Assembly (NCBI RefSeq): GCF_003721565.1
Contig: NZ_RJJE01000009.1
Location: forward strand, 248,001-312,000
Direction of reading: 5' to 3'
From: Rufibacter immobilis
GTDB lineage: Bacteria > Bacteroidota > Bacteroidia > Cytophagales > Hymenobacteraceae
DNA length: 64,000 bases
The position numbers and the translations under genes were made by a program. Of the stretch, positions 1,263 to 63,425 are shown piece by piece. Position 1 is the stretch's first letter, and each line of letters begins with the position of its first letter. Under the pieces are notes generated by a model, which did no database searches, was not told where the DNA came from, and was given only the letters and a program-made list of their open reading frames with translations.

Positions 1263-1297
1263 GTTTAGGGGCTGCTTTTCCTGAATCTGTTCAAAAC
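1263..1297. repeat. Degenerate copy of the GCGTTTAGGGGC palindrome
   Basis: The left arm GTTTAGGGGCTGCTTTTCC is clear; the right arm has decayed to TGTTCAAAAC. It follows the protease terminator. The rest of the 220-base gap up to the next gene shows no gene. Confidence 0.5.
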
Positions 1298-1438
1298 TGG
1301 CATTTGGCACGGGTGGTCCGCCAAGGAGGCACCGCAAAAATTGACCGTGGCACGTAGACGAATTCTGCCCGCGGCCGCGTTTTCAGAGTTGGCGTACTCT
1401 TTGTATTCGTCCTGCGCGGTATGAAACGATTTGAAGCG

Positions 1439-2608
1439 ATGAAGACACTGTTCAGACTTTTGCTCCTGCTGCCTCTGGGCCTTTGTTCCCAGGCGGCGCA
1501 GGCCCAGAAAGAAACCACCCACTGGTATTTCGGGCAGAATGCGGGTATGTCTTTTGCAGACCCGGCCAACCCGGTACCGCTCAAAGACGGCGGCATGTTC
1601 AGTGAGGAAGGCTGCGCCGTGCTGTCAGACGCCCTGGGCAACCTGCTGTTCTACTCCAACGGCATGCAAGTCTGGAACCGGAACCGAAAGATCATGGCCA
1701 ACGGAGATTCCCTCAAAGGCCATGAATCGTCTACCCAGTCGGCGCTCATTCTGCCCAAGCCTGGTTCGCCGCACCTCTACTACCTTTTCACCACCGATTT
1801 TCAGGGGCAGAGCCACGGCTTGCAGTACCATCTGGTGGACATGAGCCGCAACGGCGGCCTGGGCGAAGTGGTCTCTAAAAACAATCTCATCTTCGCGCCC
1901 GTCACCGAGAAACTCACCGCCATCCGCCACCGCAACGGCCGCGACTTCTGGGTCATCACGCACCGCTGGAACAGCTCGGCGTTTTACGCCTACCTCATCT
2001 CGCCGGACGGCATCACGTTCAAACCCGTGGAAAGCCACCTGGGCAGCATCCATTCCGGCGACAACGGCGCTACCATTGGGTACATGAAGGCCTCGCCTAC
2101 CGGCGATAAACTGGCCGTGGCCACCTGGGCCGCCGTGAACAAGATTGAGGTTTTTGATTTCAACAATGAGAACGGCAAGCTGGCACTGGCGGTAGATTTA
2201 GGCAAATTTGACGAAGCCTACGGCGTGGAATTCTCCCCGGACGGCACCAAGCTCTACGGAGGCAAAAACGGCATTGCCGGCGGCGAGGCCCGCATCTTCC
2301 AGTTTGATCTAGCGGCGGGCACCCCAGATGCCATCATCCACTCGGGCAAGCAGGTGGCCAAAAGCGTGAGCCGCAAGATCGGGTCCCTGCAACTGGGCCC
2401 CGACGGACGTATTTACGTGGCCCGCAACGGCAGCAACTGGCTGGGCGTGATCAGGAACCCCAACGCTCTGGGCATAGCCTGTGACTACAAAGACAGCGGC
2501 ATAAAACTAGACACGCAGAAAAGCACGCTGGGCTTGCCCAATTTCCCGGGCTTCTACTTCCAGAACCTGCCCCAGACCATCACCTCCGCAGACGTTTCCA
2601 AGCAATAA
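1439..2608 (+). CDS. Secreted beta-propeller (WD40-like) protein of unknown function
   Basis: An N-terminal signal peptide (MKTLFRLLLLLPLGLCSQAA, cleavage near AQA-QKE) is followed by HWYFGQNAGMSF, an opening typical of Bacteroidota surface propeller proteins, and by repeated blade-like segments such as ASPTGDKLAVATW, FSPDGTKLYGG and LGPDGRIYVAR. No catalytic residues were recognised and there is no C-terminal T9SS sorting domain. ATG 1439 is preferred over ATG 1421 because the signal peptide then starts directly with MKT. It stands alone between a terminator and a perfect 44-base palindrome. Likely exported to the periplasm or cell surface. In related proteins this fold is often followed by gliding-motility or PKD domains, which are absent here. 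Confidence 0.7.
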   Translation: MKTLFRLLLLLPLGLCSQAAQAQKETTHWYFGQNAGMSFADPANPVPLKDGGMFSEEGCAVLSDALGNLLFYSNGMQVWNRNRKIMANGDSLKGHESSTQSALILPKPGSPHLYYLFTTDFQGQSHGLQYHLVDMSRNGGLGEVVSKNNLIFAPVTEKLTAIRHRNGRDFWVITHRWNSSAFYAYLISPDGITFKPVESHLGSIHSGDNGATIGYMKASPTGDKLAVATWAAVNKIEVFDFNNENGKLALAVDLGKFDEAYGVEFSPDGTKLYGGKNGIAGGEARIFQFDLAAGTPDAIIHSGKQVAKSVSRKIGSLQLGPDGRIYVARNGSNWLGVIRNPNALGIACDYKDSGIKLDTQKSTLGLPNFPGFYFQNLPQTITSADVSKQ

Positions 2609-2643
2609 ACAAAGAGACGCATTTTCTCTGTAGGGAAGTTAAT

Positions 2644-2687
2644 GTGCGTTTAGGGGCTGTTTTTCGAAAAACAGCCCCTAAACGCAC
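2644..2687. repeat. GCGTTTAGGGGC palindrome, perfect 44-base copy
   Basis: A perfect palindrome centred on TTTTTCGAAAAA, starting 35 bases after the propeller gene stop. The arms extend two bases (GT/AC) beyond the core. It may end transcription upstream of meaB. Confidence 0.9.
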
Positions 2688-2770
2688 GGCTATTTCTGGC
2701 CCCAGTTGCCGGTACTTGCTACTTATTTCCTAATTTTCGCGTACTTCAACTGACACCAGCCCTTACCCGA

Positions 2771-3754
2771 GTGCCAAAACGATTTACCCCAGACGAGTAC
2801 GCCGCCGGAGTGTTATCCGGGAACCGGGTTCTCCTGAGCCGCGCCATCACCTTAGTAGAAAGCACCCTGCCCTCTGACCAGACGCTGGCCCACCAGGTCA
2901 TGGAACAGGTGTTGCCGCACGCGGGCAAGTCGGTGCGGGTGGGCATTACGGGGGTGCCGGGCGTGGGCAAAAGCACGTTTATTGAGGCCTTCGGGAATTA
3001 CCTGCTGGAGCAGCACGGCAAGAAGCTGGCCGTGTTGGCCATTGACCCCACCAGCCAGCGCACCGGTGGCAGCATTCTAGGCGACAAAACCCGCATGGAG
3101 ACGCTCTCTGCCAACCCCAACGCATACATTAGGCCTTCGCCGGCGGGCAATACCCTGGGCGGCGTGGCCCGCAGCACCCGCGAGAGCATTCTGCTCTGCG
3201 AAGCCGCCGGGTTTGACGTGATCTTTGTGGAGACCGTGGGCGTGGGCCAGTCTGAGACGGCAGTGCACGAGATGGTGGATTTTTTCCTGCTCCTCATGCT
3301 GGCCGGCGCCGGCGATGAACTGCAGGGCATCAAGAAAGGCATCATGGAAATGGCCGATGCCATCGCCATCACCAAAGCCGACGGACCCAACCTGAACGCC
3401 GCCACCAGCGCCCAAGCCGAATACCAGGGCGCGCTGCACCTTTTCCCGCTGGGCGCTTCGCAGTGGAGCCCGCGGGTCACGGTTTGTTCGGCCTACGAGA
3501 AGTCAGGATTGGGACCCATCTGGGATTCTGTGTCGGAGTACGTGGCGTTAACGCAGGGCAACGGCTACTTTCAGCAGCGCCGCCAGGAACAGAACCTGCA
3601 CTGGCTCAAGCACAGCATCCGGCAGCAACTGGAAGAGCGCTTTTACCAGCACCCACTCATTCAAGCCCAGTGGCAAACCATTGCCGGGCAAGTCACGCAG
3701 GGCCAAAAATCGCCCTTCGCCGCCTCAGCGGAACTTTTCCAGCTCATTTCCTGA
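2771..3754 (+). CDS. meaB: Methylmalonyl-CoA mutase-associated GTPase MeaB
   Basis: A G3E-family GTPase that guards and reloads the adenosylcobalamin cofactor of methylmalonyl-CoA mutase. The P-loop GVPGVGKS lies at residues 61-68, followed by LAIDPTSQRTGGSILGDKTR, the metal- and switch-region EnVGVGQSE-like motif (VETVGVGQSE) and the guanine-specificity element TKADGPN. At 327 residues the length is normal for MeaB/ArgK. Translation starts at GTG 2771; no ATG precedes the conserved region. The mutase genes are not in this window, so the pairing is inferred from the family. A palindrome copy begins three bases after the stop, and the next gene, xerD, converges on it. Confidence 0.93.
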   Translation: MPKRFTPDEYAAGVLSGNRVLLSRAITLVESTLPSDQTLAHQVMEQVLPHAGKSVRVGITGVPGVGKSTFIEAFGNYLLEQHGKKLAVLAIDPTSQRTGGSILGDKTRMETLSANPNAYIRPSPAGNTLGGVARSTRESILLCEAAGFDVIFVETVGVGQSETAVHEMVDFFLLLMLAGAGDELQGIKKGIMEMADAIAITKADGPNLNAATSAQAEYQGALHLFPLGASQWSPRVTVCSAYEKSGLGPIWDSVSEYVALTQGNGYFQQRRQEQNLHWLKHSIRQQLEERFYQHPLIQAQWQTIAGQVTQGQKSPFAASAELFQLIS

Positions 3755-3756
3755 TG

Positions 3757-3796
3757 GCGTTTAGGGGCTCTTTTTGGAAAAACGGCCGCTAAACGC
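3757..3796. repeat. GCGTTTAGGGGC palindrome copy after meaB
   Basis: The left arm is GCGTTTAGGGGCTCTTTTT; the right arm carries the CGGCCGCTAAACGC variant. It lies immediately behind the meaB stop in a convergent gap. Confidence 0.85.
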
Positions 3797-3800
3797 TTTT

Positions 3801-3929
3801 TCTCTCGCTCGCGTCCCGCGAGTGTGGGTTCCCTTCGGCCTCTGGCCGAGTGGTGGAATGTGAAACGAAAATTCCCCGAAGCGGCGCGACGCCGCCAGTA
3901 TCTCACACTCGCGGGATGCGAGCGAGAGA
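3801..3929. repeat. 129-nt cloverleaf-like inverted-repeat element
   Basis: Outer arms 3801-3826 and 3904-3929 pair over 26 bases with one mismatch. The 77-base interior holds three further small hairpins: 3835-3840/3844-3849 (TCGGCC/GGCCGA), 3855-3859/3871-3875 (GGAAT/ATTCC) and 3881-3886/3890-3895 (GCGGCG/CGCCGC). An alternative hairpin, 3895-3904 with 3926-3935 (CCAGTATCTC/GAGATACTGG), would compete with the outer stem. It sits between the convergent meaB and xerD genes. No open reading frame fits it. It could be a small non-autonomous mobile element or a structured RNA. Confidence 0.65.
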
Positions 3930-3980
3930 TACTGGTATTCCTATAATTACAGATGTAGGCTAGCTGAAATTTGCCCCCGC

Positions 3981-4880
3981 TTAACTCCTGGGGTGAAACT
4001 CTTGGATGATCTGTTTGAGGTAGTCTCGGTCCAGGTGGGTGTAAATCTCAGTGGTAGTGATGGATTCATGGCCCAGCATTTCCTGCACGGCCCGCAGATC
4101 GGCGCCGCCTTCAATCAAATGTGTGGCGAAGGAGTGCCGGAAGGTGTGCGGGCTGATGTTTTTCTGCATGCCCACTCTGGCCGCCAGGTCTTTGATGATG
4201 TTGAACACCATAACCCGGCTCAGGCTGGCACCGCGCCGGTTCAGGAACACAAAATCCTCAAAGCCCTTCTTAATGGTCTGGTGGCGGCGTACCCCGTCTA
4301 AGTACAGCCTGATGTACTTGAGCGCATCTCGGCCAATGGGCACTAAACGTTCCTTGCTGCCTTTGCCCATGATGCGCAGGAAACCCAGATCTTCATACAG
4401 GTTGCTGATCTTGAGCTCAATCAGCTCTGTGACGCGCAGCCCGGAGCTGTAGAGGGTTTCCAGCATGGCCTTGTTGCGGGTGCCTTCGGGAGTGCTCACG
4501 TCAATGGCGTCAAAAAGCGTGGTGATTTCGTCATAGCTGAGCACATCTGGGAGCTTGCGTTGCAGTTTAGGGCCTTCAATGGTCTCGGTGGGGTCGGTGT
4601 TTAGCAGGTCTTCCATGATCAGGAACTTATAGAACGCCCTGATGCCCGAGATGGTGCGCGCCTGCGAGTGGGCGGTCATGCCCAACGTATTGATCCACTC
4701 CAGAAAGCCCTGCAGGTGCGGCGGCTCCACGGCCAACGGCCCCACAGTCTGCCCCAGGCTTTCAAAATACTGCACCAGCTTGCGCACATCGCGCAGGTAT
4801 GCCTCTACGGAGTGGCCAGACAATGATTTTTCCAGCTGCAGATAACCTTGGAATTGCGTAAGACCCGTTGACCAGTTCAT
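3981..4880 (-). CDS. xerD: Tyrosine recombinase XerD
   Basis: A site-specific recombinase that, with XerC, resolves chromosome dimers at dif. The N-terminal SAM-like core-binding domain spans about residues 1-95 and the catalytic domain about 110-299. All catalytic residues are visible: Arg149 (SGLRVTEL), Lys173 (MGKGSKER), His245 and Arg248 (SPHTFRHS), His271 (LGHESI) and nucleophile Tyr280 (TEIYTHL). The 299-residue length is standard for XerD. It is divergent from aroQ, an arrangement common in Bacteroidota. The C-terminal HPRS tail is intact. Confidence 0.95.
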   Translation of the reverse strand: MNWSTGLTQFQGYLQLEKSLSGHSVEAYLRDVRKLVQYFESLGQTVGPLAVEPPHLQGFLEWINTLGMTAHSQARTISGIRAFYKFLIMEDLLNTDPTETIEGPKLQRKLPDVLSYDEITTLFDAIDVSTPEGTRNKAMLETLYSSGLRVTELIELKISNLYEDLGFLRIMGKGSKERLVPIGRDALKYIRLYLDGVRRHQTIKKGFEDFVFLNRRGASLSRVMVFNIIKDLAARVGMQKNISPHTFRHSFATHLIEGGADLRAVQEMLGHESITTTEIYTHLDRDYLKQIIQEFHPRS

Positions 4881-5024
4881 GAAGTAAAAAGAAAGTGAAA
4901 ACTATGGCCCACCGGCCGAAAACGCCCCGGAAAGCATAGCCATCCAAAGGTACTTATTCCGTACATTTGGACGTGCCCTTTCCTGCGCACAAATTTGAAG
5001 AATGCTGCTTTACGCCTGCTCCCT

Positions 5025-5483
5025 ATGAAAATACTGATTCTGAACGGCCCCAACCTGAACCTGCTGGGCCGCCGCGAGAAGTCTATCTACGGCTCCCGCT
5101 CCTTTGAGGATTACTATGAGAAAGACCTGGTACCCGCGTTCCCAGACCTGGAGCTGGCGTATTTCCAGTCTAACGTGGAGGGCGTGCTCATTGACAAACT
5201 GCACGAAGTGGGTTTCCACTACCAGGGAATTGTGTTCAACGCCGGGGCTTATACCCACTCCAGCCTGGCGCTGGCAGATGCCATTGCCGCCATTGAGACA
5301 CCCGTGATTGAGGTGCACATCTCCAACGTGTTCGCGCGCGAGGCCACCCGGCACGTCACCTACATTGGCGGGCGCTGCGTGGGCAGCATCAGCGGGTTCG
5401 GGCTGGAAAGTTATCGGCTTGCCTTGCAGTACTTTGAGCGCCAGAAGCCCAATAAGGTTGGATTTACTTACACCAAAGCGTAA
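5025..5483 (+). CDS. aroQ: Type II 3-dehydroquinate dehydratase
   Basis: Converts 3-dehydroquinate to 3-dehydroshikimate, the third step of the shikimate pathway for aromatic amino acids. It shows NGPNLNLLG (residues 7-15), Arg17 and catalytic Tyr22 (KSIYG), the FNAGAYTHSS substrate loop and EVHISNVFARE with the catalytic His. The 152-residue protein matches the type II dodecameric family. ATG 5025 is chosen; a TTG 30 bases upstream would only add ten unconserved residues. It is divergent from xerD. Confidence 0.95.
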   Translation: MKILILNGPNLNLLGRREKSIYGSRSFEDYYEKDLVPAFPDLELAYFQSNVEGVLIDKLHEVGFHYQGIVFNAGAYTHSSLALADAIAAIETPVIEVHISNVFAREATRHVTYIGGRCVGSISGFGLESYRLALQYFERQKPNKVGFTYTKA

Positions 5484-5534
5484 CCAGCGGGCGTTTTTCA
5501 CGTGTAGCACATGTCAGTGGTAATCCTACCGGCT

Positions 5535-5573
5535 GCGTTTTGGGCCTGATTTCAGAAAAAGACCCCCTAAACG
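5535..5573. repeat. Degenerate GCGTTTAGGGGC palindrome copy
   Basis: GCGTTTTGGGCCTGATTT pairs loosely with AAAAAGACCCCCTAAACG, about 50 bases after the aroQ stop. Confidence 0.6.
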
Positions 5574-5646
5574 GAAGCCTGCCCTGTGTTAACCGGTACT
5601 TCTGCCGCTGACCACCCTTACGTTTCACCCCCAATCCTTCCCGCCC

Positions 5647-6708: not shown

Positions 6709-6752
6709 TTTCGTGCCGCAATAGTCGTTCACGCTTTTGACACTGCCGTTCT

Positions 6753-7325: not shown

Positions 7326-7329
7326 TCCT

Positions 7330-7366
7330 GTTTAGGGGCTCTTTTTGGAAAAACAGCCCCTAAACG
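7330..7366. repeat. GCGTTTAGGGGC palindrome copy after marC
   Basis: Starts five bases after the marC stop: GTTTAGGGGCTCTTTTTGG with the complementary AAAAACAGCCCCTAAACGC. Confidence 0.85.
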
Positions 7367-7444
7367 CACCTGAACTTTTTCCGGAGACCAGGCAACCCTT
7401 GCCCTGCCATCTGCATCTAAGCGGTTAGGTAACCGCTTCTCTCC

Positions 7445-8269: not shown

Positions 8270-8292
8270 GGAACGTCTCACCTCCTTGCGCC

Positions 8293-8338
8293 GGTGCGTT
8301 TAGGGGGTCTTTTTGGAAAAAGAGCCCCTAAACGCACC
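8293..8338. repeat. GCGTTTAGGGGC palindrome copy with extended arms
   Basis: The arms run GGTGCGTTTAGGGG and CCCCTAAACGCACC, three bases past the core, 24 bases after the upstream stop. Confidence 0.9.
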
Positions 8339-8410
8339 TTTGTTTCCAGGCCTGGTCTCCATGAACTAAAAAATTAGCGGGGGTAACGCAATCGCTAGCG
8401 GGGTAATGGG

Positions 8411-8418: not shown

Positions 8419-8440
8419 CGGCTTACTAATCCCACGCGTT

Positions 8441-9710: not shown

Positions 9711-9718
9711 GGCGGCTG

Positions 9719-9757
9719 GTTTGGCGCAAATTTTCAAAAAACGGCCGCTAAACGCAC
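9719..9757. repeat. Degenerate GCGTTTAGGGGC palindrome copy
   Basis: The right arm AAAAAACGGCCGCTAAACGC is intact; the left arm is reduced to GGTTTGGCGCAAATTTTC. It starts nine bases after the methyltransferase stop. The remaining 150 bases to the next gene are AT rich with no other feature seen. Confidence 0.65.
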
Positions 9758-12970: not shown

Positions 12971-13028
12971 GTGCCTTTTGCGTTTAGGGGCCGTTTTTAG
13001 AGAAAGAGCCCCTAAACGCAAAAGGCAC
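12971..13028. repeat. GCGTTTAGGGGC palindrome with 9-base locus-specific arm extension
   Basis: The core is flanked by GTGCCTTTT on the left and the exact complement AAAAGGCAC on the right. It directly follows the glycosidase terminator and ends five bases before the stop codon of the convergent dehydrogenase gene. Confidence 0.92.
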
Positions 13029-16059: not shown

Positions 16060-16085
16060 CGGAAAAGCGCCTAGGATAGATGTCT

Positions 16086-16122
16086 TGTTTCAGGCCTGAT
16101 TCTGAAAAAACGGCCCCTAAAC
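16086..16122. repeat. Degenerate GCGTTTAGGGGC palindrome copy
   Basis: GTTTCAGGCCTGATTCTG with right arm AAAAAACGGCCCCTAAACA. It sits between the VOC gene start and the SDR terminator. Confidence 0.6.
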
Positions 16123-16123
16123 A

Positions 16124-16159
16124 GAAAGCCTCACCCGTGGCAGAACAGGTGAGGCTTTC
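16124..16159 (-). terminator. Terminator hairpin after the SDR gene
   Basis: GAAAGCCTCACC pairs with GGTGAGGCTTTC around a 12-base loop, 20 bases beyond the SDR stop codon on the minus strand. Confidence 0.75.
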
Positions 16160-18467: not shown

Positions 18468-18514
18468 CCATAAAGACAAAGCCCCGGCCAATGGCCGGGG
18501 CTTTGTCTTTATGG
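18468..18514. terminator. Intrinsic terminator with 22-bp perfect stem
   Basis: CCATAAAGACAAAGCCCCGG... and its exact inverted copy flank the three-base loop AAT. It lies between the PorE-like gene (stop 18543) and ubiE on the minus strand. As in the terminator at 12921, the stem is about twice as long as termination requires. Confidence 0.9.
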
Positions 18515-18542
18515 TGTTTTCTAGGAAACACCTCAGAAACGG

Positions 18543-22396: not shown

Positions 22397-22458
22397 AACC
22401 GGCCTAAACGCACTGCGGCCCCTGTTTGAGCAGGGGCCGCAGTGCGTTTAGGCCGGTT
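22397..22458. repeat. Inside-out variant of the GCGTTTAGGGGC palindrome, 28-bp perfect stem
   Basis: The left arm reads AACCGGCCTAAACGCACTGC and continues CGGCCCCTG; the right arm is its exact complement; the loop is TTTGAG. The family words CCTAAACGC and GCGTTTAGG are on the opposite sides from all other copies. It lies between the convergent DUF5606 and fbp genes. Confidence 0.85.
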
Positions 22459-24911: not shown

Positions 24912-24959
24912 GTTTGCGTTTAGGGGCTATTTTTCCAAAAACAGCCCCTAAACGCAAAC
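24912..24959. repeat. GCGTTTAGGGGC palindrome copy with GTTT/AAAC extension
   Basis: GTTTGCGTTTAGGGGCTATT pairs with AAAACAGCCCCTAAACGC followed by AAAC. Confidence 0.9.
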
Positions 24960-25853: not shown

Positions 25854-25895
25854 TGCGTTTAGGGGCTAATTTCCAAAAAAGAGGCCCTAAACGCA
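25854..25895. repeat. GCGTTTAGGGGC palindrome copy
   Basis: TGCGTTTAGGGGCTAATTT with right arm AAAAAAGAGGCCCTAAACGCA, behind the peroxiredoxin terminator. The rest of the gap before waaA shows no other feature beyond a possible TATCTTTA box near 25972. Confidence 0.85.
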
Positions 25896-28247: not shown

Positions 28248-28282
28248 TGAGTTCTGAGTCTTGAGTACTGAGTTTTAAGTTG
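28248..28282. repeat. Degenerate heptanucleotide tandem repeat, TGAGTNN type
   Basis: Five successive 7-base words: TGAGTTC, TGAGTCT, TGAGTAC, TGAGTTT, TAAGTTG. It runs from just after the rsgA stop straight into a palindrome copy. The same words occur at 55273-55305. Confidence 0.75.
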
Positions 28283-28320
28283 CGTTTAGGGGCTGTTTTT
28301 CAGAAAAGAGGGGCAAAACA
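28281..28320. repeat. GCGTTTAGGGGC palindrome copy, right arm decayed
   Basis: TGCGTTTAGGGGCTGTTTTT is intact; the right side is AAAAGAGGGGCAAAACA. Confidence 0.75.
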
Positions 28321-28373
28321 ATGTGTGCAGAGGGTTCCTTCGCCCCGCTTTCCGGCAGGCCGTAAAAAATACG

Positions 28374-28930: not shown

Positions 28931-28965
28931 AGAAAGCCGGAAGATTTACCTCTTCCGGCTTTTCT
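28931..28965 (+). terminator. Intrinsic terminator after the cyclophilin gene
   Basis: AGAAAGCCGGAAGA pairs with TCTTCCGGCTTTTCT, one bulged base, six-base loop, then GTTTTAAG. Confidence 0.8.
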
Positions 28966-28972
28966 GTTTTAA

Positions 28973-29005
28973 GTCTGTTTTTGGAAAAAGAGCCGCTAAA
29001 CGCAA
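28973..29005. repeat. GCGTTTAGGGGC palindrome copy, left arm decayed
   Basis: CTGTTTTTGGAAAAAGAGCCGCTAAACGC, just downstream of the convergent ZIP gene stop. Confidence 0.7.
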
Positions 29006-30447: not shown

Positions 30448-30492
30448 GTGTTTCCGTTTAAGAGCCGTTTTTCTAAAATCGGGGCTAAAACA
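30448..30492. repeat. Degenerate GCGTTTAGGGGC palindrome copy
   Basis: GTTTCCGTTTAAGAGCCGTT pairs loosely with AAAATCGGGGCTAAAACAGG. Confidence 0.6.
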
Positions 30493-30520
30493 GGAGTGGC
30501 AGACGAGCCTTAAAAAAACA

Positions 30521-30552: not shown

Positions 30553-30593
30553 TACGTTTTGGGCCTGTTTTCAGAAAAACGGCTTAGAAACGG
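30553..30593. repeat. Palindrome copy overlapping the 3' end of the ATPase gene
   Basis: ACGTTTTGGGCCTGTTTTC with right arm GAAAAACGGCTTAGAAACGG. The gene's stop codon (TAA, complement of 30584-30586) lies within the right arm. Confidence 0.65.
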
Positions 30594-32387: not shown

Positions 32388-32435
32388 TTTTGCGTTTAGC
32401 GCCTCTTTTTGGAAAAACAGCCCCTAAACGCAAAA
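32388..32435. repeat. GCGTTTAGGGGC palindrome copy with TTTT/AAAA extension
   Basis: TTTTGCGTTTAGCGCCTC and AGCCCCTAAACGCAAAA. It starts two bases after the stop of the 58-residue gene. Confidence 0.88.
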
Positions 32436-32648: not shown

Positions 32649-32688
32649 GCGTTTAGGGGCTGTTTTCTGAAAAAGAGCCTCTAAACGC
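32649..32688. repeat. GCGTTTAGGGGC palindrome copy
   Basis: GCGTTTAGGGGCTGTTTTCT with AAAAAGAGCCTCTAAACGC, between the 59-residue gene and the convergent VWA gene. Confidence 0.85.
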
Positions 32689-34421: not shown

Positions 34422-34455
34422 AAAACGCCCGGCAAAAGTATCTGCCGGGCGTTTT
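34422..34455 (+). terminator. Intrinsic terminator after the DUF427 gene
   Basis: AAAACGCCCGGCA pairs with TGCCGGGCGTTTT around an eight-base loop. Confidence 0.85.
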
Positions 34456-34456
34456 C

Positions 34457-34490
34457 GCGTTAATCCTGGAAAAAGAGCCGCTAAACGGCT
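34457..34490. repeat. GCGTTTAGGGGC palindrome copy, left arm decayed
   Basis: CGCGTTAATCCTGG then AAAAAGAGCCGCTAAACGGC, seven bases before the desaturase stop on the other strand. Confidence 0.65.
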
Positions 34491-39388: not shown

Positions 39389-39458
39389 GGTGCAAACTAC
39401 GAAGAAAATCCTGCAATAGAGCCCTAGGCAGGGGTATCCCCGCTTCTTTTCGCAAGCT

Positions 39459-39497
39459 GTTTTGAGCCTAATTCGGGAAAAAGAGCCGCTAAACGCA
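39459..39497. repeat. GCGTTTAGGGGC palindrome copy, left arm decayed
   Basis: GTTTTGAGCCTAATTCGGG with AAAAAGAGCCGCTAAACGC, between the flippase and aminotransferase genes. Confidence 0.65.
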
Positions 39498-40675: not shown

Positions 40676-40715
40676 TGCGTTTAGGGGCGCTTTTTTCAAA
40701 ATCAGCGCTAAACTG
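40676..40715. repeat. Palindrome copy supplying a stop codon
   Basis: TTGCGTTTAGGGGCGCTTTT with AAAATCAGCGCTAAACTGA. The TAG stop of the acyltransferase-like gene (complement of 40708-40710) is the TAG of the GTTTAG word in the right arm. Confidence 0.75.
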
Positions 40716-42175: not shown

Positions 42176-42213
42176 ACGTTTAGCGGCTCTTTTTCCGGAA
42201 TTTGGCTTAAACC
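42176..42213. repeat. Degenerate palindrome copy in a divergent promoter gap
   Basis: ACGTTTAGCGGCTCTTTTTCC with GGAATTTGGCTTAAACC. One of the few copies lying between two gene starts rather than after a stop. Confidence 0.65.
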
Positions 42214-42242
42214 AGCACCAGTGGCTATTCTAAACAGTTTCG

Positions 42243-42853: not shown

Positions 42854-42893
42854 TGCGTTTAGCGGCTCTTTTTCCGGAAACAGGGCCAAAACA
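42854..42893. repeat. Degenerate palindrome copy directly after yigZ
   Basis: TGCGTTTAGCGGCTCTTTTT with GGAAACAGGGCCAAAACA, adjoining the yigZ TAG. Confidence 0.7.
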
Positions 42894-42969
42894 AGTTCAT
42901 CGTTCAGCGGCCGGTTTACGTAATAGGCCCATTCCGCAAGTTTAATCCATCCAATCTCCGTACCGTTAC

Positions 42970-49594: not shown

Positions 49595-49644
49595 TTTCTG
49601 CGTTTAGGGGCTGTTTTTCTGAAAACAGCCCCTAAACGCAGAAA
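49595..49644. repeat. GCGTTTAGGGGC palindrome with TTTCT/AGAAA extension
   Basis: TTTCTGCGTTTAGGGGCTGT pairs with ACAGCCCCTAAACGCAGAAA; five bases outside the core match on both sides. Confidence 0.92.
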
Positions 49645-50501: not shown

Positions 50502-50561
50502 AGCGTTTCCTGCGTTTAGGGGCTGTTTTTGGAAAAACAGCCCCTAAACGCAGGAAACGCT
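50502..50561. repeat. Longest palindrome copy: 29-bp perfect stem, 10-base extension
   Basis: AGCGTTTCCT precedes the core and AGGAAACGCT follows it, so all 29 positions pair around GG. It lies eight bases after the stop of the convergent-side 908-residue gene and upstream of yceI. Confidence 0.95.
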
Positions 50562-53943: not shown

Positions 53944-54088
53944 ATTGGTTGCTGGTTGCTGATGGTTGATTATTTTTTTTGCTCTGATTTTCGCTTATTT
54001 TCAGAAAAAGAGCCTCTAAACAGCCACAGCCGCATTACCTGTTTTAGTCCTGACCGCTACCCAACAACAATTGACAATCAACAAGAAA
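53942..54088. repeat. Composite repeat: GCTGRTT heptamers around a palindrome copy
   Basis: ATTGGTT, GCTGGTT, GCTGATG, GTTGATT (53944-53971) lie left of a degenerate palindrome at 53985-54024 (right arm AAAAAGAGCCTCTAAACAG), and related inverted words (AACAACAATTGACAATCAAC, 54063-54082) lie right of it. The element fills the gap between dtd and the MazG-like gene. Confidence 0.55.
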
Positions 54089-54482: not shown

Positions 54483-54534
54483 CAAAAGCCGTTTAGGCGC
54501 TGTTTTTGGAAAAACGGCCCCTAAACGGCTTTTG
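54483..54534. repeat. Palindrome copy with CAAAAGC extension
   Basis: CAAAAGCCGTTTAGGCGCTG pairs with GGCCCCTAAACGGCTTTTG; the base inside the core that usually reads GCG is CCG on the left and CGG on the right, so both arms changed together. Confidence 0.92.
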
Positions 54535-54558
54535 CTTAAGAAGATCATCGGGGTTACC

Positions 54559-55266
54559 CTATTGGGCGGCCACCAGAAAATCGCCCTGCAAGACAGGAAC
54601 TACGGTGTAGGTGTCTTCCTGCAGGCAGAACTCTATATCTTTAAGGATGTGCAGGCGCTCCAGCCGCTGCACGTGCGAAGACTTGGAGAGGAAGGCCAGT
54701 TTATCTGCTTTGGCGGTTTGGTACAGATGGTACGCGGCCAGGGTGGCGTCATGGTTGAGGGTGAAATCTCCTTCCAACCGCTCGGCCAGGGCGCCGGCAA
54801 AGAGCGTGTCTTCCAGATTGAACAGGCCTTTCCAGCCGGCGCACACCACCACCACGTCTTTCCCGGCGCGGCGCAGATAGTCGGCCACGGCGCCCACGTT
54901 GAGGAAAGCACCTACCAAGACCTCATCGGCGGCGCGGGACAGCCGGATGGCCTGGGTACCGTTGGTGGTGGTAATGGCCAGCATGCGGCCCGTGCGGTCT
55001 TCCTCCAGGTAATGGAACGGCGAGTTACCCAAATCAAACCCCTCGGCCTTGACACCGTCCCGCTCGGCGGCCACCAGGTAATTCTGCTCACGGTACGCTA
55101 AGCAGGTTTCCAACTCGCTTACCGGGGCAATGTGGGTGATGCCGTTGGCCAGGGCCGTGACCATGCTGGAGGTTGCCCGCAGCACATCTACCGCCACGGC
55201 AATCTTGCCAGTTAAATTATACAAAGGCAACAGCTCTGGGCTGAAGCAAACGTCTATGGAAGGCAT
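54559..55266 (-). CDS. comB: 2-phosphosulfolactate phosphatase
   Basis: A ComB-family phosphatase of 235 residues: VAVDVLRATSSMVTALANGI (Mg site and phosphate-binding region), AERDGVKAEGFDLGNSP and TTTNGTQAIRLSR. In methanogens ComB makes sulfolactate in coenzyme M synthesis; in bacteria without coenzyme M it may supply sulfolactate or act on another phospho-acid. No ComA, ComC or other sulfonate gene is in the window. The family assignment is firm, the pathway is not. Confidence 0.88.
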   Translation of the reverse strand: MPSIDVCFSPELLPLYNLTGKIAVAVDVLRATSSMVTALANGITHIAPVSELETCLAYREQNYLVAAERDGVKAEGFDLGNSPFHYLEEDRTGRMLAITTTNGTQAIRLSRAADEVLVGAFLNVGAVADYLRRAGKDVVVVCAGWKGLFNLEDTLFAGALAERLEGDFTLNHDATLAAYHLYQTAKADKLAFLSKSSHVQRLERLHILKDIEFCLQEDTYTVVPVLQGDFLVAAQ

Positions 55267-55272
55267 TCTTTT

Positions 55273-55427
55273 AGTTCTGAGTCTTGAGTACTGAGTCCTG
55301 AGTTGGATTAAAAAAGTTGGCGTTTAGGGGCTGTTTTTGGAAAAACAGCCCCTAAACGCCAATGATGGTTCTGGATCTTGAATCTTAAAGTTTTCAACTC
55401 AGGACTTTGGACTCAAGAATCAGAACT
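55273..55427. repeat. Composite repeat: inverted TGAGTNN heptamer arms around a palindrome
   Basis: Left arm 55273-55305 and right arm 55395-55427 are inverted copies (29 of 33 bases) made of TGAGTNN words. Between them lies a perfect palindrome copy at 55317-55362 extended by TTGG/CCAA. The whole gap between gcvT and comB is built from this element, and the right arm's last base falls on the gcvT stop codon. Confidence 0.85.
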
Positions 55428-56521: not shown

Positions 56522-56676
56522 GTATGTTCTATTTAGGAAGTAGCGTGTAAGGATAGGCAAAAGTATAAAATTTGGATGGGTTTCTAAACCCAGGGCAGCG
56601 TCTGCGCAATCTAGCCACCGCCCTGCCTTCTTTGCCTGAACCAGGCAGCCAAATTATGGAACTACCGTAAAAAGGC

Positions 56677-56684
56677 TATTTTTG
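56677..56684 (+). promoter_or_regulatory. Probable -7 box of the histidine kinase promoter
   Basis: TATTTTTG, 74 bases before the start; TTA at 56654-56656, 20 bases upstream, is a near match to the -33 element. Confidence 0.5.
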
Positions 56685-56757
56685 TGAAGCTGGCCCTGCG
56701 CCGGCACTCTGTTTTGTACCTTGAACGGCGGTTTTCGCGGTTCCTAGCGCTCCCTAC

Positions 56758-58251: not shown

Positions 58252-58267
58252 TTTCCTGTTATCTTTG
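58237..58267 (+). promoter_or_regulatory. Promoter of the response regulator, starting inside the kinase gene
   Basis: TTG at 58237-58239 (within the last kinase codons), 20 bases, then TATCTTTG at 58260-58267. Same spacing as the peroxiredoxin promoter. Confidence 0.7.
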
Positions 58268-58295
58268 AACTTTACCAGTACCAAAACAAGTAACT

Positions 58296-58739
58296 ATGAG
58301 TGATTCGCAGCCAAGCATTTTGTTAGTGGAAGACGATTACCTTGACGCCATGAGCGTGGAACGTGAGTTAAGAAAAATCAAGGTGATGGTGCCCCTACAC
58401 AAAGCCAAGAATGGACGCGAGGCCCTGGCGATGCTACGCGGGGAGCCTGGTACTCCTAAGTTAAACCCACTGCCTACTATTATCCTGCTGGACATTAACA
58501 TGCCTAAGATGAACGGGATTGAGTTTCTGGAAGAAATCCGCCGAGACCCGTTCCTTTCGCACCTTAATGTCTTCATCATGACTACCTCCAACGAAGACTC
58601 TGACCGCCACGCCGCCCAGAACCTGCGCGTGAATGGCTATATTGTGAAGCCTCTCACCTTTGACACCTTCAATGACGGAGCCTCCAGCCTGGACAGTTTC
58701 AGCCTTTTCCTGGACCTACTCAAACTGAAGCCACAGTAG
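58296..58739 (+). CDS. Single-domain response regulator (Rcp1-like)
   Basis: A 147-residue CheY-like receiver without an output domain. The acidic pair is in LLVEDDYLDA, phosphoacceptor Asp66 in LLDINMPKMNG, and the conserved Lys in YIVKPL. The longer-than-CheY alpha4 region and GEPGTPKLNPLPTIIL loop are typical of Rcp-type partners of phytochrome or CHASE3 kinases. It should receive phosphate from the kinase upstream. Confidence 0.92.
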   Translation: MSDSQPSILLVEDDYLDAMSVERELRKIKVMVPLHKAKNGREALAMLRGEPGTPKLNPLPTIILLDINMPKMNGIEFLEEIRRDPFLSHLNVFIMTTSNEDSDRHAAQNLRVNGYIVKPLTFDTFNDGASSLDSFSLFLDLLKLKPQ

Positions 58740-58770
58740 TCTGCGGCAACCTTTTCCGCATTTAAAAAGC

Positions 58771-58823
58771 CTTGGGGCGTTTAGGGGCCGTTTTTCCAAA
58801 AAACGGCCCCTAAACGCCCCAAG
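58771..58823. repeat. GCGTTTAGGGGC palindrome with CTTGGG extension
   Basis: CTTGGGGCGTTTAGGGGCCG with CGGCCCCTAAACGCCCCAAG, 30 bases after the regulator stop and 26 before the rnhB stop on the other strand. Confidence 0.92.
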
Positions 58824-58849
58824 CTTTTCTGGTATAGACTAGTACTGTT

Positions 58850-59455
58850 CTACCCTTCCAGCACCAGGGAATCTGCGGCGGGCAGAAGCCGGAAGGTTAA
58901 CCGGTGGTGCGGTGATACCCCGTGCAGGGCAATGGCGGTGCGGTGGGCTTTGGTGGGGTAGCCGGCGTTTTGCTGCCAATTATAGTGTGGGAGGGTCTGG
59001 CCCAGAGCAGTCATGAGGTCGTCGCGGTGGGTTTTGGCTAGAATAGAGGCGGCTGCGATGCTGTAGAAACGGCTATCGCCTTTAACCATGCAGGCGTGCG
59101 GAACGTCTCTGTACGCTTTGAACCGGTTACCGTCCACCAAAAGGAACTCAGGAGTTACCGTAAACTGGTCCAGTGCCCGGTGCATGGCCAGAAAAGAAGC
59201 GTTGAGGATGTTGATCTGGTCTATTTCCTCCGGACTCACCTCGGCCACGGCCCAATGGACGGCCTCGCGGCAAACTTCCTCGCGCAGTTGCTCCCGCTGC
59301 TTCGCGCTCAATTGCTTGGAGTCTGTGAGTAAAGGGTGAAAATAATCGGGCGGTAAGATGACGGCACCGGCCACCACCGGCCCGGCCAGGCAGCCGCGCC
59401 CGGCTTCGTCCAGACCGGCCTCCAGTACGTTGCCGCTGTGGTTTGCAATGAGCAT
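58850..59455 (-). CDS. rnhB: Ribonuclease HII
   Basis: Cleaves 5' of single ribonucleotides in DNA. 201 residues: [20 protein letters not shown] with the Asp-Glu pair, [17 protein letters not shown] and [14 protein letters not shown] are the catalytic signatures. Complete. Confidence 0.95.
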
Positions 59456-59565
59456 GTTGGTACTTATTTAGCTAATCCTGTCCTGAAACAGGCAAAGAAC
59501 TGAAATAATTCTTTCTTACCCTTTCTCGGCGTGCTATAACTGGGTTAAAAATTCCTAGCCCCAAA

Positions 59566-60486
59566 TCAGGCGAGGGTGTAATTCACAAATAACGCCAGGA
59601 ACAAGAAGAGTATCAGCACCACCAGATAAGAGGCATGGATGAGCAGATCTTTGAGGAAAGCGGTGAACACCTTTTCCTGGAAAACCCGCCGCAGGGCCAT
59701 AAACAGGTAGATGAAGACCACCGCAAATGTTCCCTTAACGAGCCATTCTGCCTGCACTACATTAGACAGTAGCGCCACCACAGAAAGGAGCACAAAGACA
59801 AAACAATGGAAATGGATGGAGAAGATAAGGTGCTCTATGTAAAACCGCCTCTGCCGGAGGTGAAACACTTTGAGGATGAGGGCAAAGAGGGGCATCAGGA
59901 AGAACATGAGCATAGAGACTGTTTTCAATATCTTCTGGTCTATCTCGTGATCACTTTTCTGTAACCACTTGGTTTCCTGCCGCTCCATGAACAGAGTATA
60001 TCTACTTTTTGACTCTTGCTTGTCAGGGCCAGCGGTACTGTCTTTTTGGGTCTCCAGGTCATAGGTGATCAGTCCGAAAAACATGGAGCGCGTTTTTTTC
60101 CCGTTGGTATCCAGAGTTTGGCCAGAGGAAACGGACGGATTGGCGGGAGTATTGTTTTCTGAGTGCCCTACGGCGAAGGATAAGATCAGGAAGAAAAAGA
60201 AACTGATGAACACATACAGCCGGAAAGGCGGAACGTAGGAAGCGCGCCGGTTCAGGATGAATTCCTGGGTGAGTTTGCCGGGCTTTAGCAGCAGATAGTT
60301 GACCGTGCTGAAAAACTTGGTATCAAAGTGCAGCGTGTTTTCCAACAGTTCCAGGAACAGATGACCGGCAGGCAGCCGATAGTCATGGTTTTCCTGACCG
60401 CAGGAGGCGCAGTAATTATCTGCCTCCTGTAGTTCATGGCGGCAGTTAGGACAAACCAGGAACTTCTTATGAACGGGATGGGACAT
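59566..60486 (-). CDS. DUF3667 family zinc-ribbon membrane protein
   Basis: A 306-residue protein with an N-terminal zinc ribbon (Cys12, Cys15, Cys26, Cys29 in CPNC and CASC), the family sequence FSTVNYLLLKPGKLTQEFIL and RRASYVPPFRLYVFIS, and about four to five C-terminal transmembrane helices. DUF3667 is common in Bacteroidota and its function is unknown. Divergent from the DUF485-symporter pair. Confidence 0.88.
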   Translation of the reverse strand: MSHPVHKKFLVCPNCRHELQEADNYCASCGQENHDYRLPAGHLFLELLENTLHFDTKFFSTVNYLLLKPGKLTQEFILNRRASYVPPFRLYVFISFFFFLILSFAVGHSENNTPANPSVSSGQTLDTNGKKTRSMFFGLITYDLETQKDSTAGPDKQESKSRYTLFMERQETKWLQKSDHEIDQKILKTVSMLMFFLMPLFALILKVFHLRQRRFYIEHLIFSIHFHCFVFVLLSVVALLSNVVQAEWLVKGTFAVVFIYLFMALRRVFQEKVFTAFLKDLLIHASYLVVLILFLFLALFVNYTLA

Positions 60487-60808
60487 ACAGCATAAAACTG
60501 ACCGAGGAATTCATAAGCAAGGTACTCCTTTTCCTGAAATTAACTACTCCCCCCTTCCAACGGTCTTGCTTTACTTCTTGCTTTAACAGCTTAAACAAAG
60601 TACCTGATCTACACTCCCGTTCCTGCTGTTTTCCTGCCGTAGCAGAAAACCAGCAGGAACAGGAGAAGAGGCCGCTCATAAATTTATTTCCCGGGCAGCG
60701 TCATCCAGGATTATCTTCTTATATTCAGGAGCCAAAATATTACAAAACAGGTGGTAGCAGCTGTTTTGGGGCATTTGTTCTTTCTACCTTCACTAACAGC
60801 AAATCTAG
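60487..60808. other. Divergent intergenic region with one long hairpin
   Basis: 322 bases between the DUF3667 and DUF485 gene starts. A hairpin at 60619-60660 (GTTCCTGCTGTTTTC with GAAAACCAGCAGGAAC, one bulge) is its only structure; it is far from any stop codon, so it would lie in a leader or promoter. No gene seen. Confidence 0.6.
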
Positions 60809-61117
60809 ATGAAACCGCTTTCCTCTTCCCCCCATGAGCTACTAGCTAGCCCTGCCTTCAAAAAACTGGTGAAACAGCGCTGGTCTGTCTCCCTGGTGCT
60901 CACGTTTACCATGTTGCTGGTGTATTTCGGGTTTCTGCTCACGGTGGCCTTCAACAAACAAGCGTTGGCCACCAAGATTGGCGACTACACTACCCTGGCC
61001 ATTCCCGTAGGATTGGGCATCATTCTCTTTGCCTGGGTCCTGACGGGCATCTATGTTTTCTGGGCCAACTCCCGGTATGACAAATCAGTGGAAGAACTGA
61101 AAAACAAGCTTTCCTAA
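60809..61117 (+). CDS. DUF485 membrane protein
   Basis: A 102-residue protein with two transmembrane helices (about residues 27-50 and 60-85), opening with [17 protein letters not shown] and ending [15 protein letters not shown], characteristic of DUF485 (YjcH). It always accompanies ActP-type symporters and lies 32 bases before one here, so it is probably an accessory of acetate transport. Confidence 0.92.
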
Positions 61118-61149
61118 CCTTCTCCCCTCCTAACAAACAGTACAGGTTT

Positions 61150-62718
61150 ATGCATTTGCTCCTTCTTCAGGCCAGCCCTACCGCTTCTACGCTGGGCACG
61201 GCCAACCCAGTGTCTATTGGCATGTTCTTCCTTTTTGTGGCGGTCACGCTGTACATCACGTACTGGGCCGCCAAGAAAACCAAGACCGGCTCAGAATTCT
61301 ATGCCGCAGGCCGAAGTATCTCCGGTTTCCAGAACGGCCTGGCCCTGGCCGGCGACTATATGAGTGCCGCGTCTTTTCTGGGCATTGCGGGCATGGTGGC
61401 CACCAAAGGCTATGACGGCCTTATCTACTCCATCGGGTTTCTGGTGGGCTGGCCCCTCATTATGTTCCTCATTGCCGAGCCGCTCCGTAATCTGGGCAAA
61501 TACACCTTCGCCGATGTAGTGGCGTTCCGGCTACGGCAGCGCCCCATCCGGATTGTTTCTTCGGTGGGTTCGCTCATGACCATCGCCTTTTACCTTATTG
61601 CCCAGATGGTGGGGGCGGGCGGCCTTATTAAAACGCTCTTCGGGCTGGAATATGAGATTGCCGTAGTGGTGGTGGGCGTTGTCATGACGCTGTACGTGCT
61701 CTTCGGGGGCATGATTGCCACTACCTGGGTGCAGATTATAAAAGCCGTGCTGCTGCTGAGCGGGGCCACGGTGCTGGTGCTGCTGTCATTGGCGAAATTC
61801 GGCTTTAGCCCGGGCAATTTACTGGAATCTGTGAGCACCAACTACGGGCAGGAAATGCTGGCCCCGGGCGGTTACATCAGCAACCCGTTTGATGCGCTTT
61901 CATTGGGTCTGGCCCTCATGCTGGGCACAGCCGGTCTGCCGCACATTCTCATGCGCTTCTACACCGTGCCAGACGCCAAAGCCGCCCGTAAATCTGTGTT
62001 TGTGGCTACCGGTTTTATCGGGTATTTCTACCTGCTCACCTTCCTGATCGGGTTTTCGGCAATGGCGCTGGTGGGCAAACCCGCCATTGAAGGCATAGAC
62101 AAAGGCGGTAACATGGCGGCACTGCTGTTAGCGGAACAAACCGGCGGTACGGCTTTCCTGGGCTTCATTGCCGCGGTAGCCTTTGCCACCATTCTGGCCG
62201 TGGTGGCAGGTTTAACCTTATCTGGGGCTTCCAGCATCTCGCACGACCTTTACGTGCACGTGTTCAAGAATGGGGTTTCCAATGAGAAAGGCGAGATGAA
62301 AGTGGCCAAACGCGCCACGGTGGGCCTGGGCATTCTGTCTGTGTTACTGGGGCTGGTGTTCAAGGGCCAGAACGTGGCATTCATGGTAGGCCTGGCGTTT
62401 TCTATTGCCGCCAGCGCCAACTTCCCGGCGCTGCTCATGTCCATTATCTGGAAACGGTTCACCACCAAAGGAGCGGTCTGGAGCATCGCCACCGGCGCGC
62501 TGCTGTCATTGGTGTTGATTGTGCTCAGCCCTACCATCATGGTAGACATCATGGGTTACCCCGAAGCCATCTTCCCGCTTAAAAACCCGGCTCTGGTGTC
62601 TATGTCCGGCGCTTTCCTGATGGGCATCATTGTTTCTCTATTGCAACCGGAACAAGGGGCCGCCGCCAAATTCGAGAGCGAAAAGCTACGGACCTATCTG
62701 GGTGTGGGCGCTGAATAG
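61150..62718 (+). CDS. actP: Cation/acetate symporter (sodium:solute symporter family)
   Basis: A 522-residue transporter with about 13 transmembrane helices: [20 protein letters not shown] and [15 protein letters not shown] near the start, [15 protein letters not shown], and the sodium-site region [17 protein letters not shown], as in ActP. Together with DUF485 and the acs gene downstream it forms an acetate uptake and activation set. The symbol is inferred from family and context. Confidence 0.88.
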
Positions 62719-62744
62719 ATACAGCTATCGTCTTACTCATAAAA

Positions 62745-62784
62745 GCGTTTAGGGGCCGTTTTTCCAAAAACAGCCCCTAAACGC
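62745..62784. repeat. GCGTTTAGGGGC palindrome copy after actP
   Basis: GCGTTTAGGGGCCGTTTTTCC with AAAAACAGCCCCTAAACGC, 26 bases after the actP stop. Confidence 0.9.
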
Positions 62785-62836
62785 AAATCCATTCTCAATG
62801 CCCGGCTCTCTCCATGGGATAGCCGGGCATTCTGGT

Positions 62837-62873
62837 TTTAGCTTAATTCTGGAAAAAGCCCCCTTAACGGAAT
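62837..62873. repeat. Eroded palindrome copy
   Basis: TTTTAGCTTAATTCTGG with AAAAAGCCCCCTTAACGG; both arms are decayed. Confidence 0.5.
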
Positions 62874-62949
62874 TGACTCAGACACTCGCAGGTCCTCCAG
62901 ACGCTGCGAGGCCTTTTGGAGCAAACGGTAAAGCGGCGGCAGGCGGAAG

Positions 62950-63097
62950 AACCCACCCCTACCCCTCCGAGGAGGGGAGTATCTGCTAGAGTGGGAAGTA
63001 ATTTATCTAGCTGTTAAGACAAAAGCTAAACTTAGTGCTAACCTTTAGCTTTAGCTATGCGACAAAACTCCCCTCCTGGGAGGGGCAGGGGTGGGTT
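62950..63097. repeat. Inverted repeat element with ACCCACCCCT arms (MITE-like)
   Basis: Left arm 62950-62978 (starts AACCCACCCCTACCCCTCC) and right arm 63069-63097 are inverted copies over 29 bases with three mismatches, around a 90-base AT-rich spacer. Each arm contains its own small GGAGGGG/CCCCTCC hairpin. Similar arms are familiar from other Bacteroidota genomes. Confidence 0.75.
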
Positions 63098-63390
63098 TAC
63101 ACCTTTAGAACTTCAGCCTCATCCTGCAACAGCCTTTACTACCCGCACCCTTTCCAGTCTTTCCCTAGAGCGCCTCGCTTGTGGCCACAGATAGGCAGAA
63201 GCTAAGAATAAGCTGCTTTGACATGGCCGCAAGGGCAGTGCGAGAGGGGAAGACGGGGCCCCGCGGCCGTGAGCGCTTACCGCCAAAGATGAAACAACAC
63301 GGCCCGTAAACTCTTAGACAAACCGCCAAGTCCAAGGCCAAAACCACTTCAACCTTCTGATTCAAAAAAGTGCACAAAACCACTCTATTT

Positions 63391-63425
63391 TGTGTCATTT
63401 TTCCAAAAAAGAGCCCCTAAACGCC
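63391..63425. repeat. Palindrome copy, left arm decayed, upstream of acs
   Basis: TGTCATTTTTCCAAAAAAGAGCCCCTAAACGCC split at 63391-63425. It lies 76 bases before acs, in what should be its promoter region. Confidence 0.65.

What the first reader, a model, noticed from the sequence alone, without database searches (positions are those of the whole stretch)
1263..63425. A ~40-nt palindrome family, more than 30 copies in 64 kb, just behind genes
Copies of GCGTTTAGGGGC-TGTTTTT-NN-AAAAACA-GCCCCTAAACGC were located by eye at 2644, 3757, 5535, 7330, 8293, 9719, 12971, 16086, 24912, 25854, 28281, 28973, 30448, 30553, 32388, 32649, 34457, 39459, 40676, 42176, 42854, 49595, 50502, 53985, 54483, 55317, 58771, 62745, 62837, 63391 and others. 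That is about one per two genes. Most begin 2-60 bases after a stop codon and in convergent gaps, which suggests a role in ending transcription or protecting 3' ends. The A/T tracts are at the tip of the stem rather than behind it, so it is not a textbook terminator. The density exceeds that of typical enterobacterial REP elements. No RAYT transposase is present in the window.
Basis: seen in the sequence. Interest (0 to 1): 0.8.

Follow-up and report, generated by a model that had tools for sequence, protein, structure and literature searches.

The report
Species-dialect palindromes behind Rufibacter genes
A bacterium carries very many copies of a 40-letter mirror-image DNA sequence, usually just behind genes; related species keep it in the same places but several spell it in their own way, which suggests that an unknown cell factor reads it.

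Summary
29 of the 30 listed positions match a pair-scoring model. The genome has 495 copies within 3 mismatches; sampling extrapolates to about 2,000.

The family is essentially restricted to Rufibacter in the GTDB sense. It favours gene 3' ends: 56 of 72 convergent gaps hold a copy, against 20 under random placement.

New findings:
(1) Orthologous 3' ends keep a copy in 167 of 230 comparisons, yet the inner stem follows species "dialects".
(2) Copies with identical arms often continue as a perfect inverted repeat into unique flank (20 of 33, against 0 of 116 asymmetric copies), as hairpin-templated copying predicts.
(3) In 116 of 282 copies only one arm carries the dialect, and these fold no better than random sequence, so the conserved thing is not simply an RNA hairpin.
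(4) It is not a RAYT-linked REP: 26 of 28 Y1 loci carry other hairpins or repeats.

Best reading: DNA dyad sites at 3' ends read by an unidentified, species-specific factor, perhaps a two-way transcription boundary. At least two loci are intrinsic terminators. Factor and function are inferred.

The parts
2646..2685 (.). symmetric copy, 18 of 18 pairs
3757..3796 (.). symmetric copy, 15 of 18 pairs, 2 nt after a stop
5535..5574 (.). asymmetric copy, dialect arm on the right
7328..7367 (.). symmetric copy, 15 of 18 pairs
8296..8335 (.). symmetric copy, 17 of 18 pairs
9716..9755 (.). asymmetric copy, dialect arm on the right
12980..13019 (.). symmetric copy in a convergent gap; arms run on 9 bp into unique flank; a separate hairpin plus T-run terminator lies beside it
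16085..16124 (.). asymmetric copy; copies in 12 of 14 congeners compared, 53-85 nt after the ortholog's stop
18503..18542 (.). weak, degenerate copy at a 3' end where six relatives have a copy
24916..24955 (.). symmetric copy, arms run on 4 bp
25855..25894 (.). symmetric copy, 15 of 18 pairs
28282..28321 (.). asymmetric copy, dialect arm on the left
28964..29003 (.). asymmetric copy in a convergent gap, abutting a canonical terminator
30454..30493 (.). asymmetric copy, dialect arm on the left
30554..30593 (.). copy with neither arm in the dialect, overlapping a stop codon; same position in 9 congeners
32392..32431 (.). symmetric copy, arms run on 4 bp
32649..32688 (.). symmetric copy, 16 of 18 pairs
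34449..34488 (.). degenerate asymmetric copy
39457..39496 (.). asymmetric copy, dialect arm on the right
40677..40715 (.). copy with the dialect base in both arms, 12 of 18 pairs
42176..42215 (.). degenerate asymmetric copy
42855..42894 (.). asymmetric copy 2 nt after a stop
49600..49639 (.). symmetric copy, 18 of 18 pairs, arms run on 5 bp
50512..50551 (.). symmetric copy, 18 of 18 pairs, arms run on 10 bp and are followed by T6 on the gene's strand
53984..54023 (.). asymmetric copy, dialect arm on the right
54489..54528 (.). symmetric copy in a convergent gap, arms run on 6 bp (AAAAG/CTTTT)
55320..55359 (.). symmetric copy behind gcvT, part of an intrinsic terminator; a copy in 15 of 15 congeners
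58777..58817 (.). symmetric copy inside an intrinsic terminator stem behind a response-regulator gene
62745..62784 (.). symmetric copy, 17 of 18 pairs
63385..63424 (.). asymmetric copy, dialect arm on the right

Best explanation
A genus-wide family of 40-bp DNA dyad sites, found roughly once per gene 3' end or convergent gap and kept at orthologous positions. Shown here: the placement, the conserved positions, the species-specific inner-stem dialects, the mix of symmetric and asymmetric copies, and perfect arms that run on into unique flank. Inferred: (i) an unidentified factor of the genus reads the arm sequence, arm by arm and in either orientation; its preference has drifted between species and pulled the copies along. 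The site acts as an orientation-independent boundary at 3' ends, for example a protein roadblock or 3'-end former, with some copies recruited as intrinsic terminators. (ii) Single-stranded copies fold back and one arm is recopied from the other (quasipalindrome template switching). This makes perfect arms and at times runs past the base into the local flank, leaving locus-specific symmetric extensions.
For: Occupancy of 56 of 72 convergent and 128 of 228 tandem gaps against 20.1 and 79.7 at random; divergent gaps show no excess, 26 of 68 against 22.8. Copy kept at orthologous 3' ends in 167 of 230 comparisons, against 47 of 225 where this genome has none. Within-species inner-stem identity 0.646 against 0.598 for orthologs and 0.562 otherwise; permutation maximum 0.578. 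In 116 of 282 copies only one arm carries the dialect base, and they fold like random 40-mers, yet sit as close to stops (median 45 against 36 nt). The AA/AX/XX counts (142, 116, 24) equal those expected for independent arms (my arithmetic). No clear orientation relative to the gene (36 against 26 for the dialect arm; loops). Extensions of at least 5 bp: 20/33, 7/28, 5/27, 3/25, 0/29 with 0, 1, 2, 3, 4 or more arm mismatches, 0/116 in asymmetric copies. Two long extensions occur in the genome only at their own arms, and all 9 of at least 12 bp only there in 663 kb.
Against: No factor was found or searched for. No expression data. Independence of the arms at position 7 speaks against templated copying as the main way the dialect spreads. 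One-arm test: a changed arm base is matched by its partner in 150 of 525 cases (shuffled 107, maximum 129), while the partner keeps the consensus in 275. Gaps with a strong copy have somewhat fewer separate terminators (17 of 100 against 25 of 85 with a weak copy, p = 0.053), and near-perfect stems more often precede a T-tract; both suit an RNA hairpin. Several species (such as G006, G027, G051, G057) have no sharp dialect. The polarity of extensions could not be shown.
Confidence: 0.38

Rival explanations
1. RNA hairpins: the copies are terminators or mRNA 3'-end stabilisers; selection on the stem explains paired changes and lineage drift explains dialects. Asymmetric copies are decayed or immature ones.
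For: Symmetric copies fold at -23.6 kcal/mol (median) close behind stops. Intrinsic terminators with T-tract at gcvT and 58296-58739 in most congeners. T-tract lean of near-perfect stems; fewer separate terminators beside strong copies, p = 0.053.
Against: 116 of 282 copies here and 127 of 240 in relatives (median -8.6) are weak hairpins. No overall T-tract excess here. No orientation bias. The partner arm of asymmetric copies has its own consensus, not that of a decayed dialect arm.
Confidence: 0.3
2. Mobile or selfish repeat: a non-autonomous element spreads by copy and paste and tolerates 3' gaps best.
For: High copy number and lineage-specific cores; many near-identical copies.
Against: Positions conserved across the genus. 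Y1 genes carry other hairpins, and the palindrome flanks both sides of 5 of 33 of them against 96 of 449 other genes. Whole-element pasting predicts two-arm or no-arm copies, not 116 of 282 one-arm copies. Flank extensions have no donor. No match in phage or plasmid records. For it: four of four genes of one Y1 lineage have a palindrome 38-39 bp upstream.
Confidence: 0.17
3. Mutational by-product: template switching keeps remaking palindromes at sequences prone to it, without function.
For: Extensions and identical arms; arm homogenisation by template switching is described in PMC8604942 (abstract and passages seen).
Against: Does not explain sequence sharing between loci, genus restriction, or 3'-end occupancy.
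Confidence: 0.1
4. DNA uptake signal in inverted pairs.
For: Thousands of copies, species dialects and inverted pairs at terminators are known for DUS (passages of PMC3630211).
Against: Strict arms lie outside an element in 5 of 358 cases, and those 5 show a degenerate partner by eye; 7 of 194 copies lie in CDS, whereas the paper's passages call intragenic DUS common.
Confidence: 0.05

Closest known systems
REP / REPIN elements with RAYT (TnpA-REP)
   Same: Short extragenic palindrome, high copy number, gene 3' gaps.
   Different: No GTAG-like foot seen: flanks are symmetric, T-rich before and A-rich after. No link to the Y1 genes. Orthologous positions kept across a genus.
Atypical REP hairpins of TnpA-Y1 subclass 2.6 (Bacteroidetes; PMC6006769, section 25 and passages)
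   Same: Same phylum; hairpin copies elsewhere in the genome.
   Different: Rufibacter Y1 lineages have such hairpins, of other sequences; one of them, GCGAGTCTNNAGACTCG, has 0-83 forward matches per genome in 16 genomes.
DNA uptake sequence dialects of Neisseriaceae (PMC3630211, passages)
   Same: Thousands of copies, species dialects, inverted pairs at terminators.
   Different: Here arms do not occur singly and rarely in genes.
Intrinsic terminators
   Same: Two loci fit.
   Different: No overall T-tract excess in this genome; many copies do not fold.
Quasipalindrome template switching (PMC8604942 passages; others recalled)
   Same: Identical arms and extension of inverted repeats.
   Different: A mutational process, not an element family; here it acts on one family at very many loci.

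Membership tests
REP (RAYT-associated) | Flanks its RAYT gene | tested here: not met
   Both sides in 5 of 33 Y1 genes, one side in 15, none in 13; background both 96, one 203, none 150 of 449 genes. Other hairpins or flank-shared repeats beside 26 of 28 Y1 loci. Against: 4 of 4 genes of one lineage have a copy 38-39 bp upstream, possibly one orthologous locus.
REP (RAYT-associated) | Conserved tetranucleotide such as GTAG at one foot | tested here: not met
   Flank composition is symmetric (T before, A after), no one-sided tag.
REP (RAYT-associated) | High-copy extragenic palindrome | tested here: met
Intrinsic terminator | GC-rich hairpin followed by a T-tract on the transcribed strand | tested here: inconclusive
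   Met at two loci; in tandem gaps 16 of 108 downstream against 17 of 108 upstream; relatives 34 of 144 against 22 of 144.
DNA uptake sequence | Occurs as single non-palindromic sites, also in genes | tested here: not met
   353 of 358 strict arms lie in a paired element; 7 of 194 copies in CDS.
DNA uptake sequence | Raises uptake of DNA that carries it | not testable with these tools
   Needs transformation assays.
Known Rfam RNA family | Match at the gathering score | tested here: not met
   0 matches in the window.
Mobile element (MITE-like) | Filled and empty sites, target duplications | tested here: inconclusive
   Intergenic flanks of the compared species do not align well enough; no strain pairs were available.

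The most novel reading that the evidence does not exclude
Rufibacter marks most convergent and many other gene 3' ends with a bidirectional DNA boundary signal read by a genus-specific protein; reader and roughly two thousand sites co-evolve as species dialects, and hairpin-templated arm copying supplies ready-made symmetric sites.
Probability: 0.25. Interest if true: 0.85.

Novelty: new variant of a known kind. Interest (0 to 1): 0.6.

Why it matters
If a trans-acting factor reads the sites, this would be a bacterial 3'-boundary system based on a DNA site rather than on an RNA hairpin with a U-tract, and a site code that drifts in step over most of a genome. Whatever the function, the graded link between arm identity and flank extension is a natural record of hairpin-templated copying in a bacterium. 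Genomes of several strains of one species would make both processes measurable.

Tried and rejected
RAYT as mobiliser: followed through 33 Y1 genes and their flanks and rejected as the general explanation. Against that rejection stand one lineage with a palindrome 38-39 bp upstream in 4 of 4 genes and the G057 gene with a strong palindrome 113 bp upstream, the only copy within 3 mismatches in that genome.

Insertion into ready-made terminator loops as the source of the extensions: fits the locus at 58777 and its orthologs, but only 4 of 37 extended copies have a T-rich stretch right after the stem.

Polarising extensions against the relative G063: 11 rows (9 distinct palindromes) of 71 comparisons had extensions; flanks mostly do not align.

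DNA uptake: rejected because arms do not occur singly.

Same kind of repeat in other genera of the family: 0 model-like copies in five samples of 80 kb; the commonest 8-mer was shared by at most 3 hairpins there, against 12 in 104 kb of this genome and 9 in 53 kb of G048.

A check for the hairpin nuclease SbcD (TIGR00619) was sent three times and never answered.

Weak points: the pair counts rest on sequences picked as hairpins and are biased; the one-arm test was used instead. The constancy of GTTT...AAAC and TTT...AAA is partly required by the scan. Gene calls come from a simple codon-usage caller of my own, so some gaps, divergent ones above all, will be mis-typed. Copies within 40-70 bases of a stretch end were dropped before flank counts, and gaps under 40, 45 or 60 bases before occupancy and terminator counts. 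In one search a palindrome between convergent genes can count twice. In one search at most 110 candidates per genome were scored.
Full report
WHAT IS THERE. The window lies at C1:248001-312000 of a 4.77-Mb draft genome in 17 contigs. So the organism is a Rufibacter in the GTDB sense (Hymenobacteraceae for Rufibacter); the species is unknown. The arm is over-represented in the window (48 matches against 7.5), and 29 of 30 listed positions are recognised. The 40-mer occurs 495 times with up to 3 mismatches (control 0). Looser scans give 194-200 copies in 464 kb, controls 1-4: about 2,000 by extrapolation.

WHERE IT SITS. 7 of 194 copies fall in predicted CDS. In 368 gaps of at least 45 bp (663 kb), copies occupy 56 of 72 convergent gaps (random mean 20.1, maximum 31 of 2,000 trials), 128 of 228 tandem gaps (79.7, maximum 95) and 26 of 68 divergent gaps (22.8, maximum 29). 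In tandem gaps 75 of 102 lie nearer the stop.

A GENUS FAMILY WITH DIALECTS. A covariance model from 75 copies gives 94-110 hits among 110 scored candidates in each of the 14 genus genomes of a 60-genome family sample; of 46 other-genus genomes, 4 have 1-4 weak hits. Among 80 gcvT loci from named genomes, hits occur only in the 3 Rufibacter/Sabulibacter records. Five 80-kb samples of other genera have none. The exact 40-mer within 3 mismatches occurs in 12 of 120 family genomes, all in this genus. Cores differ between species: GCGTTTAGGGGCTG here, CCGTTTTCGGGCTCA in G048, CGTTTTTGG(C/G)CTG in G017 and G022, CTGTTTTGGGGCTG in G060. Others, such as G006, G027, G051 and G057, are less uniform, on small samples.

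SAME PLACES, DIFFERENT SPELLING. In 15 congeners, orthologous 3' ends hold a copy in 167 of 230 comparisons when this genome has one and in 47 of 225 when it has none. Behind gcvT a copy is present in 15 of 15, 44-96 nt after the stop. Inner-stem identity is 0.646 within a species between loci (1,030 pairs), 0.598 between orthologs (741) and 0.562 otherwise (14,882); 200 permutations reach at most 0.578. The outermost pairs follow the locus (0.558 against a permuted 0.452). So sites are inherited in place while cores change together.

TWO CLASSES. Of 282 copies in 663 kb, 142 have the dialect base A at position 7 in both arms, 116 in one, 24 in neither, which is what independent arms would give (my arithmetic). 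In the one-arm class the dialect arm is well conserved and the partner follows a looser consensus like that of the relatives. These copies fold like random 40-mers (median -7.2 against -6.7; symmetric class -23.6) yet sit at a similar distance from stops (45 against 36 nt). Of 358 strict arms 5 lie outside an element. Neither dialect arm (36 against 26) nor loop (GG 25, CC 23) is clearly oriented to the gene. In relatives 127 of 240 copies are weak hairpins (median -8.6, background -6.9).

ARMS THAT RUN ON. 28 of 200 copies continue at least 5 bp as a perfect inverted repeat into locus-specific flank; shuffled partners reach at most 5. In the both-arm class the share falls with arm mismatches: 20/33, 7/28, 5/27, 3/25, then 0/29; 0/116 in the one-arm class and 2/24 in the rest, one of these the unrelated hairpin at 22408. 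Identical arms are commoner than shuffled (33 against 9.5). Two long extensions occur in the genome only at their own arms. In relatives the trend is weaker: 16 of 74 with 0-2 mismatches, 7 of 249 with 3-9. Hairpin-templated recopying predicts this; arm homogenisation by template switching is described in PMC8604942 (abstract and passages). Only 4 of 37 extended copies are followed by a T-rich stretch. Which flank was the template could not be shown.

TERMINATORS. Two loci are intrinsic terminators in most congeners: gcvT, and the response-regulator gene at 58296-58739 (A-tract, GC stem, palindrome, GC stem, T-tract). Overall there is no T-tract excess here (16 against 17 of 108), but near-perfect stems lean that way (7 against 3 of 27; relatives 12 against 2 of 22, overlapping the same orthologous loci). 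Separate canonical terminators stand in 17 of 100 gaps with a strong copy, 25 of 85 with a weak one and 24 of 101 with none (strong against weak p = 0.053).

NOT A RAYT REPEAT. The genome has one Y1 gene above the Pfam cut-off and a fragment. Rufibacter Y1 proteins of about 181 aa fit the motifs given for subclass 2.6 in PMC6006769, whose genes are flanked by atypical hairpins (passages and section 25 read). Beside 26 of 28 Y1 loci there is another hairpin or a repeat shared by both flanks; L123 and L141 have none. The palindrome itself also stands beside L123, L136 and L139. It lies on both sides of 5 of 33 Y1 genes against 96 of 449 others.

READING. I favour DNA dyad sites at 3' ends, read arm-wise by an unknown factor that differs between species, with templated copying making the perfect copies. 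Reader and boundary role are inference; RNA hairpins remain a close rival. Ten searches of open-licence PMC papers returned nothing that, from titles and abstract starts, describes this family; that is no proof that it is unpublished.

Noticed in passing
L123-L153 and L009: Rufibacter Y1 (RAYT-like) genes fall into several lineages, many with their own flanking hairpin, such as GGAAGTTTATAAACTTCC, CGCCAATCTGGAGATTGGCG or TTCCGGATTTACCAATCCGGAA: candidate RAYT/REP systems.
   Followed up: partly
genome-wide, e.g. G000:C1:126337-126425: GCGAGTCTNNAGACTCG occurs 37 times forward in this genome and 0-83 times in 16 genus genomes, often as pairs about 72 bp apart, like REPINs.
   Followed up: partly
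window 55260-55427 (3' region of gcvT): Beside the palindrome, a run of CTGAGTCTTGAGTC-like repeats stands before it and its complement after it, kept in most congeners.
   Followed up: no
window 22408-22447: A strong inverted repeat of other sequence with an 11-bp perfect continuation, in a convergent gap.
   Followed up: no
L112 14534-14573 and 15381-15420: Two identical, unusually symmetric copies 850 bp apart, either side of one gene, in G012.
   Followed up: no
L119, gcvT 3' end in G048: One arm has the G048 dialect (ATGAGCCCGAAAAC) and the other an older spelling, like a half-converted copy.
   Followed up: no
G000:C10:128063-128338: A second, partial Y1-like coding stretch in this genome.
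   Followed up: no
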